NCBI RefSeq assembly: GCF_003391055.1
Contig: NZ_QUAJ01000001.1
Span: 186,001-250,000 of the forward strand
DNA from: Psychrilyobacter piezotolerans
Lineage (GTDB): Bacteria > Fusobacteriota > Fusobacteriia > Fusobacteriales > Fusobacteriaceae
Direction of reading: 5' to 3'
Length of the DNA stretch: 64,000 bases
Positions 5,188 to 55,749 of this stretch are shown here, piece after piece. A model generated the notes under the pieces. That model worked only from the letters and a program-made list of their open reading frames with translations, was not told the DNA's origin and searched no databases. Made by a program: the position numbers and the translations under genes. Position 1 is the stretch's first letter, and each line of letters opens with the position of its first letter.

Positions 5188-5216
5188 ATAATAACAAATT
5201 TTGTACATTTTTTCAA
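5188..5216 (-). promoter_or_regulatory. acpP promoter with weak copy of the fatty-acid operator
   Basis: On the minus strand: -35 TTGAAA (5211-5216), 17-base spacer, -10 TATTAT (5188-5193). The sequence at 5191-5204, ATAACAAATTTTGT on the plus strand, matches the ATAACA-NN-TGTTAT palindrome at 10 of 12 fixed positions. It overlaps the -10 box by three bases, the same placement as at the tetR and porin promoters. The promoter is fairly convincing. The operator is weaker and depends on the position match. Confidence 0.5.
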
Positions 5217-5992: not shown

Positions 5993-6886
5993 TTATATCG
6001 ATTCGACATTTACCACTTCTAAAGTTTTATCTATCTTTCTAACTAAACCTTTTAATACTTTTCCAGGTCCAATCTCATAGAATTTAGTTACTCCATTATC
6101 CCTTAATTTTTCGATTGTTTCAACCCATCTTACAGGACCAAAAGTCTGGTGGTATAACTCTTCTTTTATTTTTGCAGCATCCTTTAAAAACTCTACTCCT
6201 GTATTAGACAAGATCTCGATATTTCCTTCCATAAAGTTGAATTTATCAAAATCAGCTTTTAATCTGTCTCCTGCCGGTTTCATCAATGATGAATGAAATG
6301 GCCCGGATACAGCCAGTACCATAGCTCTTTTAGCTCCTGCTTCCTTTAACTTCTCACATGCTGCAGCAATGGCATCTTTTGATCCCGCTATTACAGTCTG
6401 CTTAGGTTCGTTATAGTTTACAGCTTCTACTATTCCATCTATACTTTCACAGATCTCCTCGATCTTAGCTGATTCCAGCCCGATAATAGCTGCCATAGTT
6501 CCGTCTACCTCACCTGAAACTACGTTCATAATCTCCCCTCTAAGGGCAGTTAATCTCACTGTATCACAAGTTGATAATACGTTAGCAGTTCCTAATGCTG
6601 AGTACTCTCCCAGTGAATGTCCAGCCGCATAGTCTGCTTCGATTCCGCTGTCCTTTAATAACTTAGTCAATACCAACGACATAGTTACTATAGCAGGCTG
6701 TGTATATTTTGTTTGTTTTAACTTCTCCTCAGGTCCGTTAAACATAGTTTCTTTTAAGTCTAAATCTAAGCTATCAAAAATTTCATCAAAATATTTTTTA
6801 GCCATCTCATTTGTTTCATATAATTCCTTACCCATTCCAACATATTGTGTTCCTTGTCCTGGATATATAAACGCTATTTTCGACAT
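5993..6886 (-). CDS. fabD: Malonyl-CoA:ACP transacylase
   Basis: Transfers malonyl groups from CoA to acyl carrier protein, supplying the extender unit. The motif GQGTQ is at residues 10-14, the nucleophile elbow GHSLGE has Ser91, and the partner histidine is in SGPFHSSLM near residue 197. The ATG at 6886 follows AAGGGAGGAACA; an in-frame ATG six codons earlier lacks a site and would lie at the predicted transcription start. The product is 297 residues, normal for FabD. It is the first gene behind an internal, operator-bearing promoter (6903-6944), so fabD-fabG can be transcribed separately from plsX-fabH. Confidence 0.95.
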   Translation of the reverse strand: MSKIAFIYPGQGTQYVGMGKELYETNEMAKKYFDEIFDSLDLDLKETMFNGPEEKLKQTKYTQPAIVTMSLVLTKLLKDSGIEADYAAGHSLGEYSALGTANVLSTCDTVRLTALRGEIMNVVSGEVDGTMAAIIGLESAKIEEICESIDGIVEAVNYNEPKQTVIAGSKDAIAAACEKLKEAGAKRAMVLAVSGPFHSSLMKPAGDRLKADFDKFNFMEGNIEILSNTGVEFLKDAAKIKEELYHQTFGPVRWVETIEKLRDNGVTKFYEIGPGKVLKGLVRKIDKTLEVVNVESI

Positions 6887-6902: not shown

Positions 6903-6944
6903 ATAACACCTGTAATTTATATCACATAACACCTGTTATGTCAA
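6903..6944 (-). promoter_or_regulatory. Internal fab promoter with two palindromic operators
   Basis: On the minus strand a near-consensus promoter: -35 TTGACA (6939-6944), 17-base spacer, -10 TATAAA (6916-6921). The spacer holds a perfect copy of the palindrome ATAACACCTGTTAT (6926-6939). A second copy, ATAACACCTGTAAT (6903-6916, one mismatch), covers the expected transcription start; the copies are 23 bases apart. A repressor bound here would block both polymerase binding and start. The same motif is found at the tetR, porin and yceD promoters, so the bound protein is inferred to be the TetR protein at 12342-12923. Confidence 0.8.
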
Positions 6945-6955
6945 ATTTTGTGTGA

Positions 6956-7951
6956 CTAATATGCCCACTTCATAACACATGATGCATAGGTCAATCCGGC
7001 TCCGAAACCTACCAACGCTATATTATCACCTTTTTTAATCATTCCTTTTTCCAACGCTTCTCCCAAGGCTAACCCAACGGAAGCTGCTGATGTATTTCCA
7101 TATCTATCCAAGTTTAGCACAAATTTTTCTGCCGGGAATCCCAACTTTTTTGCTGCTGAACTTATGATTCTCATATTAGCTTGGTGAGGTACGATTAGTT
7201 CTAATTCATCTATACCTATACCTGTATTTTCCAATACTTTTTCCACTGCTCCAGGCATGGCTTTTACTGCAAATTTAAAAACTTCCTGTCCCTTCATCTT
7301 AAGGTAGTGAGATCTATTATCTATAGTTTCATGGGTTGCAGGAGTTCTAGATCCACCTGCCGGGATGATCAATACATCATCCAAATCTCCGTCAGCACCC
7401 AGATGAGAACCTATAAGGCCGTAACCCTCTTCAACCTCTCCCAGTACTGCCGCTGCCGCTCCATCACCAAATAGTACACAGGTATTCCTGTCTTCCCAAT
7501 CCAAAATTCTAGAGAATACTTCCGCACCTATCACCAATACTTTTTTATACATACCAGTTGCTATAAAGTTCCCTCCGGCTTCCAGTCCGTATACAAATCC
7601 ACTGCAGGCCGCACCCAGGTCAAATGCTGCTGCATGATGTGCTCCCAATCTTTTTTGCAGCATAGCCGATACAGAGGGAGTAAAATAATCCGGTGTCAGC
7701 GTAGCCACAACTATGAGGTCTATCTCCTCCGCCTTGGTATTAGATGATTCCAAGGCCTTCACTGCTGCATTGTAAGCAAGGTCAGAGGTAGCTTCATTCT
7801 CTGCCGCTATCCTTCTTTCCTTTATCCCTGTCATCTTTTGTATCCATGCATCTGAAGTATCCACTATTTTTTCTAAATCAGAATTTGTCATTATTTTTTC
7901 AGGGACATAGGTTCCTATTCCCAATATCCCAAAATTTTTAAGAGTTTTCAT
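6956..7951 (-). CDS. fabH: 3-oxoacyl-[acyl-carrier-protein] synthase III
   Basis: Initiating condensing enzyme, joining an acyl-CoA primer to malonyl-ACP. The active-site cysteine is Cys116 in DLGAACSGF, the histidine is in VPHQANMR and the asparagine in RYGNTSAAS, so the Cys-His-Asn triad is complete. The 331 residues are typical. The ATG follows CGGAGGAGAAA and overlaps the end of plsX by 14 bases, which implies coupling. The gap to fabD carries a promoter with two operators, dividing the cluster into plsX-fabH and fabD-fabG halves. Confidence 0.95.
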   Translation of the reverse strand: MKTLKNFGILGIGTYVPEKIMTNSDLEKIVDTSDAWIQKMTGIKERRIAAENEATSDLAYNAAVKALESSNTKAEEIDLIVVATLTPDYFTPSVSAMLQKRLGAHHAAAFDLGAACSGFVYGLEAGGNFIATGMYKKVLVIGAEVFSRILDWEDRNTCVLFGDGAAAAVLGEVEEGYGLIGSHLGADGDLDDVLIIPAGGSRTPATHETIDNRSHYLKMKGQEVFKFAVKAMPGAVEKVLENTGIGIDELELIVPHQANMRIISSAAKKLGFPAEKFVLNLDRYGNTSAASVGLALGEALEKGMIKKGDNIALVGFGAGLTYASCVMKWAY

Positions 7952-9835: not shown

Positions 9836-9886
9836 ATTATATTAAACTTTCCAACCTTTGTCAAGTAAATTTTCTTAACAAAGGTT
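9836..9886 (-). promoter_or_regulatory. Proximal consensus promoter of yceD-rpmF, overlapped by an inverted repeat
   Basis: On the minus strand: -35 TTGACA (9859-9864), 17-base spacer, -10 TATAAT (9836-9841); both hexamers are perfect consensus. A 13-base-arm inverted repeat with one mismatch (AACCTTTGT-c-AAG and CTT-a-ACAAAGGTT, 9853-9886) covers the -35 box and the bases upstream. It could be an operator for an unidentified regulator or an RNA stem in the transcript from the upstream promoter. It does not match the ATAACA-NN-TGTTAT motif. Confidence 0.8.
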
Positions 9887-10026: not shown

Positions 10027-10055
10027 ATTATATAACGTATGTTATTTTATTTCAA
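10027..10055 (-). promoter_or_regulatory. Distal yceD-rpmF-plsX promoter with fatty-acid operator
   Basis: On the minus strand: -35 TTGAAA (10050-10055), 17-base spacer, -10 TATAAT (10027-10032). The palindrome ATAACGTATGTTAT (10032-10045) matches ATAACA-NN-TGTTAT at 11 of 12 fixed positions and abuts the -10 box. The transcript would have a leader of about 215 bases before yceD. The site is also 19 bases upstream of the hydF -35 box on the other strand, but its placement within this promoter makes the leftward operon the more likely target. Confidence 0.68.
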
Positions 10056-12341: not shown

Positions 12342-12923
12342 TTAATTTAATTCATTTTTTTCTTTTTCTATACCTAGGTGGTAATAGATGATCGATGCAG
12401 GGCCACTTATCAGTCTTTTTCTTATAAAATTATCCGATGGTGTTTTGAAATATCCCGTTGCAATAAGGGTAGATAAACCATGGGCATATGTCCAGCAATC
12501 AATGGTCAAAGTTTCTTTGACATCAGCTGGCAGACTATCAAACCTTTCGTCTTTTTTCATCTCCTCAAAGATAATCTTATGAAACTCAGATATCAATGTA
12601 CTGTATGAGCTATTTCTTAAAAATATAGATTTAAATAACGGTTTTTCTTCCCTTGCAAATTTGCAGATCCCCATCCCTATATTAAGAAAAGGTACCTCCT
12701 CTTTTTCTTTGCTGACATATGTTAAAAATAGATTTTTGGCTCTATTTATCAATTCCTTTTTTAATTCATCCATAGATATAAATAAACCATAGATGGGTGC
12801 AGGAGAACAGTTTAATTCCTTGGCTAAACTTCTAGCTGTGATATTTTCCAAACTGCCTCTCTCTAACATACCAAAAGCTTTATCTATTATTTGTTCTCTT
12901 GTGAATATGGGTTTTTTAGGCAT
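12342..12923 (-). CDS. TetR family regulator, candidate repressor of fatty-acid genes
   Basis: One-component regulator of the TetR family: N-terminal helix-turn-helix (residues about 8-55, ITARSLAKELNCSPAPIYGLF) and a variable all-helical ligand domain to residue 193. Family members usually bind palindromes as dimers and release DNA on binding a small ligand. Its promoter carries two copies of ATAACACTTGTTTT. The same palindrome occurs at the divergently placed FadL-like porin and at the yceD-plsX and fabD promoters. I infer that it represses itself and the fatty-acid synthesis and uptake genes, with an acyl-CoA or acyl-ACP as a plausible ligand. Family assignment is firm; regulon and ligand are inference. 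Confidence 0.85.
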   Translation of the reverse strand: MPKKPIFTREQIIDKAFGMLERGSLENITARSLAKELNCSPAPIYGLFISMDELKKELINRAKNLFLTYVSKEKEEVPFLNIGMGICKFAREEKPLFKSIFLRNSSYSTLISEFHKIIFEEMKKDERFDSLPADVKETLTIDCWTYAHGLSTLIATGYFKTPSDNFIRKRLISGPASIIYYHLGIEKEKNELN

Positions 12924-12951: not shown

Positions 12952-13011
12952 ATTATAACACTTGTTTTTTTATCTTTTATGTATTATAACACTTGTTTTT
13001 TAGTTTTTCAA
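12952..13011 (-). promoter_or_regulatory. tetR promoter with two operators (autoregulation)
   Basis: On the minus strand: -35 TTGAAA (13006-13011), 17-base spacer, -10 TATAAT (12983-12988). Operator 1, ATAACACTTGTTTT (12986-12999), overlaps the -10 box. Operator 2, an identical 14-mer (12955-12968), lies 31 bases downstream in the early transcribed region and overlaps a second TATAAT (12952-12957). The duplicated block is a 20-base direct repeat, TGTATTATAACACTTGTTTT. Confidence 0.78.
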
Positions 13012-13102: not shown

Positions 13103-14347
13103 TTAGAATTTATATGCTGCACTTATTCCTGTAGCAATTATATTTTTTTTATAATTTACCCCATCTACTTCATGATCAATATAGTCCACATACATCGTTC
13201 CGAATGTCCACTCTAAGTTAGAATTCTGCTGGAACTTAGCTCCCACTGTAAATATATGTGAGTTTAATGCAAACTCGGTGTCGTTAAACGTCTCATCAGA
13301 TGCACCTGTATCCGCATAGTTATATCCAGTAGTCAGAGTCCATCTTTCAGATACCTGGTACTCTGTACCTACATTTACTTCCCATCCGTTTTTAAATCCG
13401 TCTTTACCATCTGTGTCAGCTTCTGAAATGAAAAAATAGTTTCCTCCACCCATTACAGTCCACTTATCGGTCATTTTATAAGATACCCCGTATTTCAATT
13501 CAGCTGGAAGGTCTCTCCATCTTTTATCACCATCGATGATTGGAGCTAAAGCTGCTCCTGCCGGGTTTGCAGCTATTGCAGGTAGCATTACTCCTAAACT
13601 TCCACTTCCTTCTGAATCTGCTTCAAATTCCAGCTTAACCTTAGTATTATAAGTCACTGCCATGTTCAATCTGTCGTTAGGTCTATAGTTCACTCCAAAG
13701 GTTCCACCGAATCCCTGGGCCGTTCTCTCTGCATCATAAGTACCATCCAATCCTTTAGTTATTGGACTTGTTGGATATTGTTTTGTATCTTTAACTTCAA
13801 TTTTTATATTTCTTTGGGCATAGATATATTTAACCCCTGCTGCCACCGACCATTCATTGTTTAATCTGTAGGCCGTCCCAAGGTTAGCCATGACATAGGC
13901 ATTTTTCCCTTCAACGGTACCGCTTCCACCAAAATCAGCTCCAAGTCCACCATGAAGTAAACCATCCAATAAAGGTACTCCATCCTCATAGTCTAAAGTA
14001 GGTCCTCCTGCTGCTCCTCCAGTGTTGGCATAGAATGCCCAGTCTCCACTCTTATGAATATAACTTAAATTAGGTATAATCCCCATTGGATCGTTAGCCT
14101 TATAGTTATCCCCACCCTTTTCCATCTCGTAAGTAATATTAGACAGCTGTCCTCCTATACTCATATAGTTTCCGTCCTCTAAATGGACTAAACCTGCCGG
14201 ATTATAATAAACCGCCTCTGCTGTTAATGTAGCATTTTGAGCCGGGTTCCCCATATATGCTGGCGTTGAGTTAGCTAGTGCGTCTACACTGGCTCCATAT
14301 GATACTGTACTAAGTAAAGCTATACATCCAAATAATATTTTCTTCAT
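13103..14347 (-). CDS. FadL/OmpP1 family outer-membrane porin
   Basis: Outer-membrane beta-barrel of the FadL/OmpP1/TodX family, which imports long-chain fatty acids or other hydrophobic molecules. A Sec signal peptide ends near residue 19 (SYG-A). The mature N-terminal plug segment has the family's NPAG motif (YYNPAGLVHLEDG, near residue 50). Alternating beta strands follow, and the chain ends in an aromatic residue (AAYKF) as needed for barrel assembly. At 414 residues it is normal for the family. Its promoter carries two copies of the ATAACA-NN-TGTTAT operator, and its neighbour is the presumed regulator. Substrate is inferred from family and regulon. Confidence 0.85.
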   Translation of the reverse strand: MKKILFGCIALLSTVSYGASVDALANSTPAYMGNPAQNATLTAEAVYYNPAGLVHLEDGNYMSIGGQLSNITYEMEKGGDNYKANDPMGIIPNLSYIHKSGDWAFYANTGGAAGGPTLDYEDGVPLLDGLLHGGLGADFGGSGTVEGKNAYVMANLGTAYRLNNEWSVAAGVKYIYAQRNIKIEVKDTKQYPTSPITKGLDGTYDAERTAQGFGGTFGVNYRPNDRLNMAVTYNTKVKLEFEADSEGSGSLGVMLPAIAANPAGAALAPIIDGDKRWRDLPAELKYGVSYKMTDKWTVMGGGNYFFISEADTDGKDGFKNGWEVNVGTEYQVSERWTLTTGYNYADTGASDETFNDTEFALNSHIFTVGAKFQQNSNLEWTFGTMYVDYIDHEVDGVNYKKNIIATGISAAYKF

Positions 14348-14420: not shown

Positions 14421-14471
14421 AATATAACACCTATTATTTTAAAAGTCAAGATTTAAAATAACACTTGTTCT
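14421..14471 (-). promoter_or_regulatory. Porin promoter with two fatty-acid operators
   Basis: On the minus strand: -35 TTGACT (14444-14449), 17-base spacer, -10 TATATT (14421-14426). Operator copy ATAACACCTATTAT (14424-14437, one mismatch) overlaps the -10 box. Copy ATAACACTTGTTCT (14458-14471, one mismatch) lies nine bases upstream of the -35 box. Their starts are 34 bases apart, against 31 at tetR and 23 at fabD. Confidence 0.78.
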
Positions 14472-55185: not shown

Positions 55186-55221
55186 CCTATTAAAAATTAA
55201 TTTTCAGGGGAGGAAAAAAAG

Positions 55222-55749
55222 ATGTATGAAGGTAAACTGGTACGACTGAGGGAGTATCGAAAGGAAGATATAGAAAAAGCTAAGGAGTTTTTAAATGATT
55301 TTGAGGTAAGGAAAAATTTGCAGCCTGCAATACCTTACCCGTATACATTGGAAGACGAGGAAAAGTGGTACAGCGGTATCAGTGCTGTAAAAGATACCTA
55401 TACCTTTGCCTTGGAAACTCTAGAGGGCAGATATATTGGGGGATGCGGGGTAAATAGTGTCGATTGGAAAAACAGTAAGGCAGTGATCGGAATATTTATA
55501 GGAGATAAGGAATACTGGGGTAAAGGATACGGCAGTGATGCCATAAATACCCTGGTTAAATTTATATTTGAAGAGATGAATATCAACAAGATAGCACTGT
55601 GTGTCTATTCTTTCAACGAAAGAGCCATCAAATGTTATGAAAAATGCGACTTTACCAGAGAGGGGGTTTTGAGGGAAGAACTTTTCCGACAGGGCAGATA
55701 TCACGATGAGATATTGATGAGTCTGCTGAGGAAAGAATATAAAAAATAA
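55222..55749 (+). CDS. GNAT family acetyltransferase, RimJ/RimL-like
   Basis: N-acetyltransferase of 175 residues. The GNAT core is clear: LVRLREYRKEDIE at the start, the acetyl-CoA loop GDKEYWGKGYGSDA near residues 93-106 and YSFNERAIKCYEKCDF near 130-145. The closest overall pattern is the RimJ/RimL and spermidine-acetyltransferase-like set, which modify protein N-termini, amino acids or polyamines; the substrate cannot be read from sequence. AGGGGAGGAAAAAAAG precedes the ATG. It is monocistronic, with its own promoter and terminator. Confidence 0.85.
   Translation: MYEGKLVRLREYRKEDIEKAKEFLNDFEVRKNLQPAIPYPYTLEDEEKWYSGISAVKDTYTFALETLEGRYIGGCGVNSVDWKNSKAVIGIFIGDKEYWGKGYGSDAINTLVKFIFEEMNINKIALCVYSFNERAIKCYEKCDFTREGVLREELFRQGRYHDEILMSLLRKEYKK

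What the first reader, a model, noticed from the sequence alone, without database searches (positions are those of the whole stretch)
6903..6944. Internal fab promoter carries a perfect operator in its spacer and a second one at the start site
Between fabH and fabD, TTGACA and TATAAA are 17 bases apart on the minus strand. The spacer holds the only perfect 12/12 copy of the palindrome (6926-6939), and a second copy (6903-6916) covers the start point, 23 bases away. It means fabD-fabG can be turned down independently of plsX-fabH, an unusual internal control point in a fab cluster.
Basis: partly seen in the sequence, partly recalled or inferred. Interest (0 to 1): 0.72.

Follow-up and report, generated by a model that had tools for sequence, protein, structure and literature searches.

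The report
Fatty-acid repressor operators inside fab cluster
Inside a cluster of fat-making genes in a fusobacterium there is a second start signal that carries DNA switches, and the same switch sits in front of a fatty-acid import gene, an unsaturated-fat gene and a neighbouring repressor gene across the whole bacterial family, which points to a previously undescribed repressor that coordinates fat import and fat making.

Summary
On the minus strand TTGACA (6944-6939), 17 bases and TATAAA (6921-6916) precede fabD; a perfect ATAACANNTGTTAT lies in the spacer (6926-6939) and an 11/12 copy (6903-6916) covers the start point. It is not chance. The promoter, and an operator beside or just after its -10 box, recur between fabH and fabD in most Fusobacteriaceae genera: 41 of 58 genomes, against a mean of 0.9 in shuffles. 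The downstream copy is the conserved one; the perfect spacer copy is confined to the window's genus. The same palindrome sits in the promoters of a tetR-like gene and a fadL-like gene in this window, and of a FabX-like gene elsewhere in the genome, family-wide. Control promoters (yceD, fabK, fabH) have none. All 48 genomes with this TetR have the sites; of five near-complete genomes without it, one does. Best reading: the TetR at 12342-12923 represses its own gene, fadL, fabX and fabD-fabG: a FabR-like regulator that is not a FabR orthologue. 'Independent of plsX-fabH' holds only partly: no terminator precedes fabD, and here a distal yceD promoter also carries an 11/12 copy. Binding, repression and ligand are inferred.

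The parts
6939..6944 (-). -35 box TTGACA of the internal fabD promoter
   Evidence: TTGACA with a 17-base spacer recurs in most genera
6916..6921 (-). -10 box TATAAA (TATATT or TAAAAT in other genera)
6926..6939 (.). operator O1, perfect 12/12 palindrome in the spacer; conserved in all 7 same-genus genomes with this stretch, not across the family
6903..6916 (.). operator O2, 11/12, covers the expected start point near 6909; the family-wide operator
5993..6886 (-). fabD (start codon at 6886 preceded by GGGAGG, not the upstream ATG at 6904)
   Evidence: TIGR00128, 320.7 bits
5230..6009 (-). fabG (3-ketoacyl-ACP reductase by sequence and position), second gene of the controlled unit
6956..7951 (-). 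fabH, upstream gene; no terminator-like site between it and fabD
12342..12923 (-). TetR-family regulator (P0001), proposed repressor
   Evidence: weak TetR_N and TetR_C_33 hits, TetR-like predicted fold (pLDDT 86)
12955..12968 (.). operator upstream of tetR, 11/12
12986..12999 (.). operator upstream of tetR, 11/12, in the spacer of TTGAAA-17-TATAAT (13011-12983)
13103..14347 (-). fadL-like outer-membrane fatty-acid transporter, next to tetR
   Evidence: (PF03349, 3e-22)
14424..14437 (.). operator in the fadL promoter spacer (TTGACT-17-TATATT), 11/12
14458..14471 (.). second operator upstream of fadL, 11/12
10032..10045 (.). 11/12 copy in the spacer of a distal minus-strand promoter (TTGAAA 10055 - TATAAT 10027) 240 bases before yceD-rpmF-plsX-fabH; only in the window's genus
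9836..9864 (-). proximal yceD promoter, perfect consensus TTGACA-17-TATAAT, no operator
5188..5216 (-). separate acpP promoter TTGAAA-17-TATTAT without a good operator copy, so the controlled unit is mainly fabD-fabG

Best explanation
The two palindromes are operators of the TetR-family protein encoded at 12342-12923. The protein dimer binds AWWACANNTGTWWT and blocks RNA polymerase at the internal fabD promoter, at its own gene, at the neighbouring fadL-like transporter gene and at a FabX-like gene elsewhere in the genome. It thus turns down fatty-acid import, the likely unsaturated-fatty-acid branch enzyme and the fabD-fabG step together. Shown: the sequences, promoter geometry, family-wide conservation at these genes and not at controls, the tetR-fadL linkage, and the match between presence of the TetR and presence of the sites. 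Inferred: that this TetR is the protein that binds, and that binding represses (the sites cover the -10 box, spacer or start point). Most speculative: the signal, probably a long-chain acyl-ACP or acyl-CoA acting as co-repressor, because import and synthesis are controlled with the same sign.
For: Promoter and operator conserved between fabH and fabD across genera at fixed geometry: TTGACA-17-TATATT/TAAAAT, operator usually starting 2-3 bases after the -10 box. Sites upstream of fabD in 41/58, of FabX-like in 33/44 and of fadL in 33/42 genomes, against shuffle means of 0.6-0.9; controls 0/16, 0/32, 0/55. tetR and fadL are neighbours, often in one apparent operon with the sites in its promoter. 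All 48 genomes with intact TetR have at least one site and 36 have sites at two or more of the three promoters; of five near-complete genomes without it one has sites (Fisher p 1.7e-5, not corrected for relatedness). In G044 the tetR copy is broken by stop codons and the sites are absent. TetR fold predicted at pLDDT 86. E. coli/Salmonella FabR, a TetR-type fatty-acid repressor, has the core ACAnnTGT (PMC4804515). In genome-wide exact searches the hits in several relatives are largely these promoters, plus accBC in G025.
Against: No binding, transcript or mutant data for this organism. G046 has sites but no TetR was found in its 90%-complete assembly. Several genera (g4, g7, g13, part of g12) have a short fabH-fabD gap and no fabD operator, although g4 and g7 keep the TetR, so control of fabD is not universal. 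The accB copies lie upstream of the -35 box, where a simple repressor would be less expected. Co-occurrence counts are inflated by relatedness.
Confidence: 0.78

Rival explanations
1. The palindromes are real operators but are bound by a different regulator encoded elsewhere; the linked TetR has other targets and is merely one of the regulated genes.
For: Binding was not tested. G046 has sites without a detected TetR. Second TetR-FadL pairs exist in some relatives.
Against: Sites at the tetR-fadL promoter itself across genera, co-presence in 48 of 48 genomes and loss with the broken tetR of G044, and a core like that of the TetR protein FabR.
Confidence: 0.12
2. The protein works as a dual regulator: it represses fadL, fabX and fabD but activates accBC, much as E. 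coli FadR represses some genes and activates others.
For: At accB the palindrome sits at a near-constant distance just upstream of the -35 box (centre roughly -48 to -50) in four genera including this one.
Against: At fabD, fabX, fadL and tetR the sites overlap the spacer, -10 box or start point, a repressor position. Only about half of the accB promoters examined have the site.
Confidence: 0.2
3. The palindromes near fabD are chance products of an AT-rich sequence, and the promoter is an ordinary constitutive internal promoter.
For: Genome-wide the near-palindrome is no more frequent than its reversed control (47 against 42), and E. coli has a weak fabD promoter with no reported operator (PMC3896788).
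Against: Conservation across genera at fixed spacing, against 0.89 expected in shuffles, and none at control promoters.
Confidence: 0.03

Closest known systems
FabR of E. coli and Salmonella (TetR-family repressor of fabA and fabB)
   Same: TetR-family fatty-acid repressor; operator core ACAnnTGT (PMC4804515); targets include the unsaturated-fatty-acid branch; weak similarity limited to the DNA-binding part.
   Different: 18.2 bits against a cutoff of 151 for the FabR model; targets found here are fadL, tetR itself, a FabX-like gene and an internal fabD promoter; encoded next to fadL; ligand unknown.
FadR of E. coli (GntR family)
   Same: One protein linking fatty-acid uptake or breakdown and fatty-acid synthesis genes (PMC3896788; PMC3460868 abstract).
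   Different: Different protein family and operator (from general knowledge); FadR represses the fad system and activates fab genes, whereas here both kinds of gene carry the operator in a repressor position.
FabT (MarR family) and FapR of Gram-positive bacteria
   Same: From general knowledge: one regulator controls most of the synthesis genes in response to acyl-ACP or malonyl-CoA.
   Different: Other protein families and operators; fadL is not a target. Not tested here.
Internal fabD promoter of the E. coli fab cluster
   Same: Promoter just upstream of fabD inside a cluster of the same gene order (PMC3896788).
   Different: Described there as weak and thought to offset polar effects; no operator reported.
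Fatty-acid synthesis regulation in Fusobacterium nucleatum (PMC11091888)
   Same: FabX homologue and FabK studied in a relative; a C>T change at fabK TSS+1, 7 bases after the -10 box, raised fabK mRNA 7-19 fold without changing fabG.
   Different: The passages read name no TetR (0 occurrences) and no operator; an F. nucleatum genome was not identified among those held, so that base could not be placed in or out of a palindrome.

Membership tests
TetR family of transcriptional regulators | N-terminal TetR-type helix-turn-helix | tested here: met
   PF00440 matched in 38 of 38 orthologues, best 7.4e-07; the window protein alone scores below the curated cutoff (17.7 against 24 bits)
TetR family of transcriptional regulators | All-helical fold with C-terminal ligand domain | tested here: met
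   Nine helices, pLDDT 86; top PDB matches are TetR-family proteins, FasR 6o6o at TM 0.67-0.69; TetR_C_33 in 28 of 38
FabR | Sequence equivalog of FabR (NF008402) | tested here: not met
   18.2 bits against cutoff 151, limited to residues 8-62
FabR | Operator core ACAnnTGT | tested here: met
   Sites found share ACANNTGT; reported FabR core is ACAnnTGTnnnnT
FabR | Targets fabA and fabB | not tested
   fabA/fabB were not searched for; the targets found are fabD, FabX-like, fadL and tetR
FabR | Binding strengthened by unsaturated acyl thioesters | not testable with these tools
   needs purified protein
FabX (H. pylori unsaturated-fatty-acid enzyme), for the C21 target gene | Four cysteines for the [4Fe-4S] cluster in the C-terminal subdomain | tested here: met
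   KCVQCLKKCDYSFC aligns with the C300/C304/C308/C320 stretch, spacing differs slightly (positions from PMC8626469); FabK model only 174 of 453 bits
sigma-70-type promoter | Two hexamers at 16-18 spacing, conserved | tested here: met
   11 of 12 matches in the window and 10-11 of 12 in nearly all genomes with a long fabH-fabD gap

The most novel reading that the evidence does not exclude
Fusobacteriaceae share an undescribed acyl-supply regulon run by one TetR protein: import (fadL), unsaturated-fatty-acid synthesis (FabX-like), the fabD-fabG step through an internal promoter and, with the site upstream of the -35 box, possible activation of malonyl-CoA supply (accBC). It would be a dual regulator sensing acyl-ACP, with a core operator like that of FabR reached from a non-orthologous TetR protein.
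Probability: 0.25. Interest if true: 0.68.

Novelty: new variant of a known kind. Interest (0 to 1): 0.52.

Why it matters
No fatty-acid regulator was named in the papers found here for any fusobacterium, although the phylum includes F. nucleatum, whose fatty-acid synthesis is studied as a drug target. This gives a concrete regulator, a defined operator and a short target list, all directly testable. It also suggests that import and synthesis are controlled in the same direction, unlike FadR in E. coli, and that control of the core cluster is placed at an internal promoter so that phospholipid and initiation enzymes (plsX, fabH) can run separately.

Tried and rejected
Counting palindromes genome-wide: no enrichment over the reversed control, so frequency alone proves nothing. 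A tighter pattern with a YR centre missed the window's own sites (centres CC/GG/AG) and was dropped as a definition. The other sites in G000 that were examined (near a racemase-like gene, a membrane-protein gene, a methyltransferase-like gene, or inside coding sequence) showed no lipid link. A structured RNA or tRNA in the yceD leader: none found. Operator at canonical fabK: absent in the genomes held. Literature searches for a fusobacterial TetR/FadL/fab regulator found none.

Full report
WHAT IS THERE. The minus strand before fabD reads TTGACA-TAACAGGTGTTATGTGA-TATAAA, then TTACAGGTGTTATGATTAAGGGAGGAACAATG. The -35 box is 6944-6939, the -10 box 6921-6916, O1 6926-6939 (12/12) and O2 6903-6916 (11/12, starting with the last A of the -10 box); the expected start is near 6909. 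The gene order on the minus strand is yceD-rpmF-plsX-fabH-fabD-fabG-acpP-fabF-rnc. acpP has its own promoter-like site and no terminator-like site lies between fabH and fabD.

IS IT CHANCE. Frequency alone would not convince: 47 near-copies in the genome against 42 for the reversed pattern. Position does. In the 58 Fusobacteriaceae genomes in which the region upstream of fabD could be read, the core ACANNTGT with at least 9/12 matches lies within 100 bp in 41, across 10 of 14 genera; shuffles of the same sequences give 0.89 on average, at most 4. The promoter is conserved with it: TTGACA, 17 bases, TATATT or TAAAAT, then usually 2-3 bases and the operator. Where the fabH-fabD gap is short (g4, g7, g13, some g12), promoter and operator are both missing. 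Both halves of O1 are invariant in all seven same-genus genomes with this stretch, but outside the genus only a weak spacer copy was seen (G053).

THE REGULON. Within the window the other good copies cluster upstream of a TetR-like gene (12955, 12986) and a FadL-like gene (14424, 14458). The second perfect copy of the genome lies upstream of a FabK-family gene on contig C21. That protein scores only 174 bits against the FabK cutoff of 453 but aligns with H. pylori FabX including its four-cysteine stretch, so I call it FabX-like. Across the family the sites are upstream of the FabX-like gene in 33/44 and of fadL in 33/42 genomes, and at none of the control promoters yceD (16), canonical fabK (32) and fabH (55). 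In this genome an operator sits in the 17-base spacer of five promoters: fabD, tetR, fadL, FabX-like and a distal yceD promoter. tetR and fadL are neighbours in most genomes, often apparently co-transcribed behind the operator.

THE REGULATOR. P0001 (193 aa) has weak TetR_N and TetR_C_33 matches that become clear over its orthologues, a confident TetR-like model (pLDDT 86) and TetR-family proteins as its best structural neighbours, with FasR at TM 0.67-0.69 among them. Presence of the protein and of the sites go together: 48 of 48 genomes with it have sites, 36 at two or more of the three promoters; among five near-complete genomes lacking it one has sites (p 1.7e-5, relatedness not corrected). 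G044, whose copy is broken by stop codons, lacks the sites. Relatives at 29-39% identity exist in another family of the order; their targets were not examined.

HOW IT MOST LIKELY WORKS. A repressor dimer on O2 would cover the start point, and on O1 the spacer and edge of the -35 box; both would exclude or stall polymerase. Sites at the fadL, tetR and FabX-like genes are placed likewise. Import and synthesis thus carry the same control, which fits a co-repressor that reports plentiful acyl chains (acyl-ACP or acyl-CoA), as for FabR. This last step is inference. Because transcription from upstream can read through into fabD, repression here should lower fabD-fabG rather than switch it off, while plsX-fabH continue. 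In this genus the distal yceD promoter has an 11/12 copy with a mismatch in the core (ACATACGT); a perfect-consensus proximal promoter without operator follows it, so plsX-fabH would still be expressed.

COMPARISON. FabR of Salmonella has the reported core ACAnnTGTnnnnT (PMC4804515), the same core as here, but P0001 is not a FabR orthologue (18.2 of 151 bits). So: works like FabR, not a member. E. coli has a weak internal fabD promoter (PMC3896788), so the internal promoter is known in kind; its operator control is not reported there. In F. nucleatum, spontaneous C>T changes at fabK TSS+1, 7 bases after the -10 box, raised fabK mRNA without changing fabG (PMC11091888).

A FURTHER LEAD. Exact genome-wide hits in G025 included accBC. 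In this genome and in g2, g5 and g6 relatives a 10-11/12 copy lies just upstream of the accB -35 box at nearly constant distance, a position more typical of an activator.

LIMITS. The organism is a member of Fusobacteriaceae (its named relatives are Propionigenium, Cetobacterium and Fusobacterium); its genus name was not established by a tool. No expression or binding data exist here. The library searched lacks most subscription papers, so absence of a described regulator is not proof that none is described.

Noticed in passing
L399 about 1981-1994 (G000 contig C1, upstream of accB at 55211-55621): ATAACAGGTGTATT (10/12) just upstream of the accB -35 box; 10-11/12 copies at a similar place in g2, g5 and g6 relatives, a position typical of an activator.
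   Followed up: partly
window 10027-10055: Distal minus-strand promoter TTGAAA-17-TATAAT before yceD with ATAACATACGTTAT in its spacer, conserved in 6 of 8 genomes of the genus and absent elsewhere.
   Followed up: yes
L154-L162: Second TetR-FadL pair (36-40% identical to this TetR) in g2 and g3 genomes, in the order tetR-fadL and, in those looked at, with different repeats (CATAACACTGTTG) upstream.
   Followed up: no
G044 contig C126 37412-37950: The tetR orthologue is broken by several stop codons, and the operators at fabD and the FabX-like gene are absent.
   Followed up: partly
PMC11091888, Table 3: F. nucleatum fabK TSS+1 C>T, 7 bases after the -10 box, goes with 7-19 fold more fabK mRNA; the position would match an operator half-site, but that sequence was not held.
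   Followed up: partly
L363 1690 (G037 contig C1 944189): AAAACATATGTTAT upstream of an alpha/beta-hydrolase-like gene about 4 kb from the FabX-like gene; possible further target.
   Followed up: no
L002 536-1468: FabX-like gene in an anaerobic family, although H. pylori FabX is described as passing electrons to oxygen; the electron acceptor here is an open question.
   Followed up: no
L204-L261: Homologues of the TetR (27-35% identity) in many uncultured Bacilli and Clostridia genomes; their neighbours were not examined.
   Followed up: no
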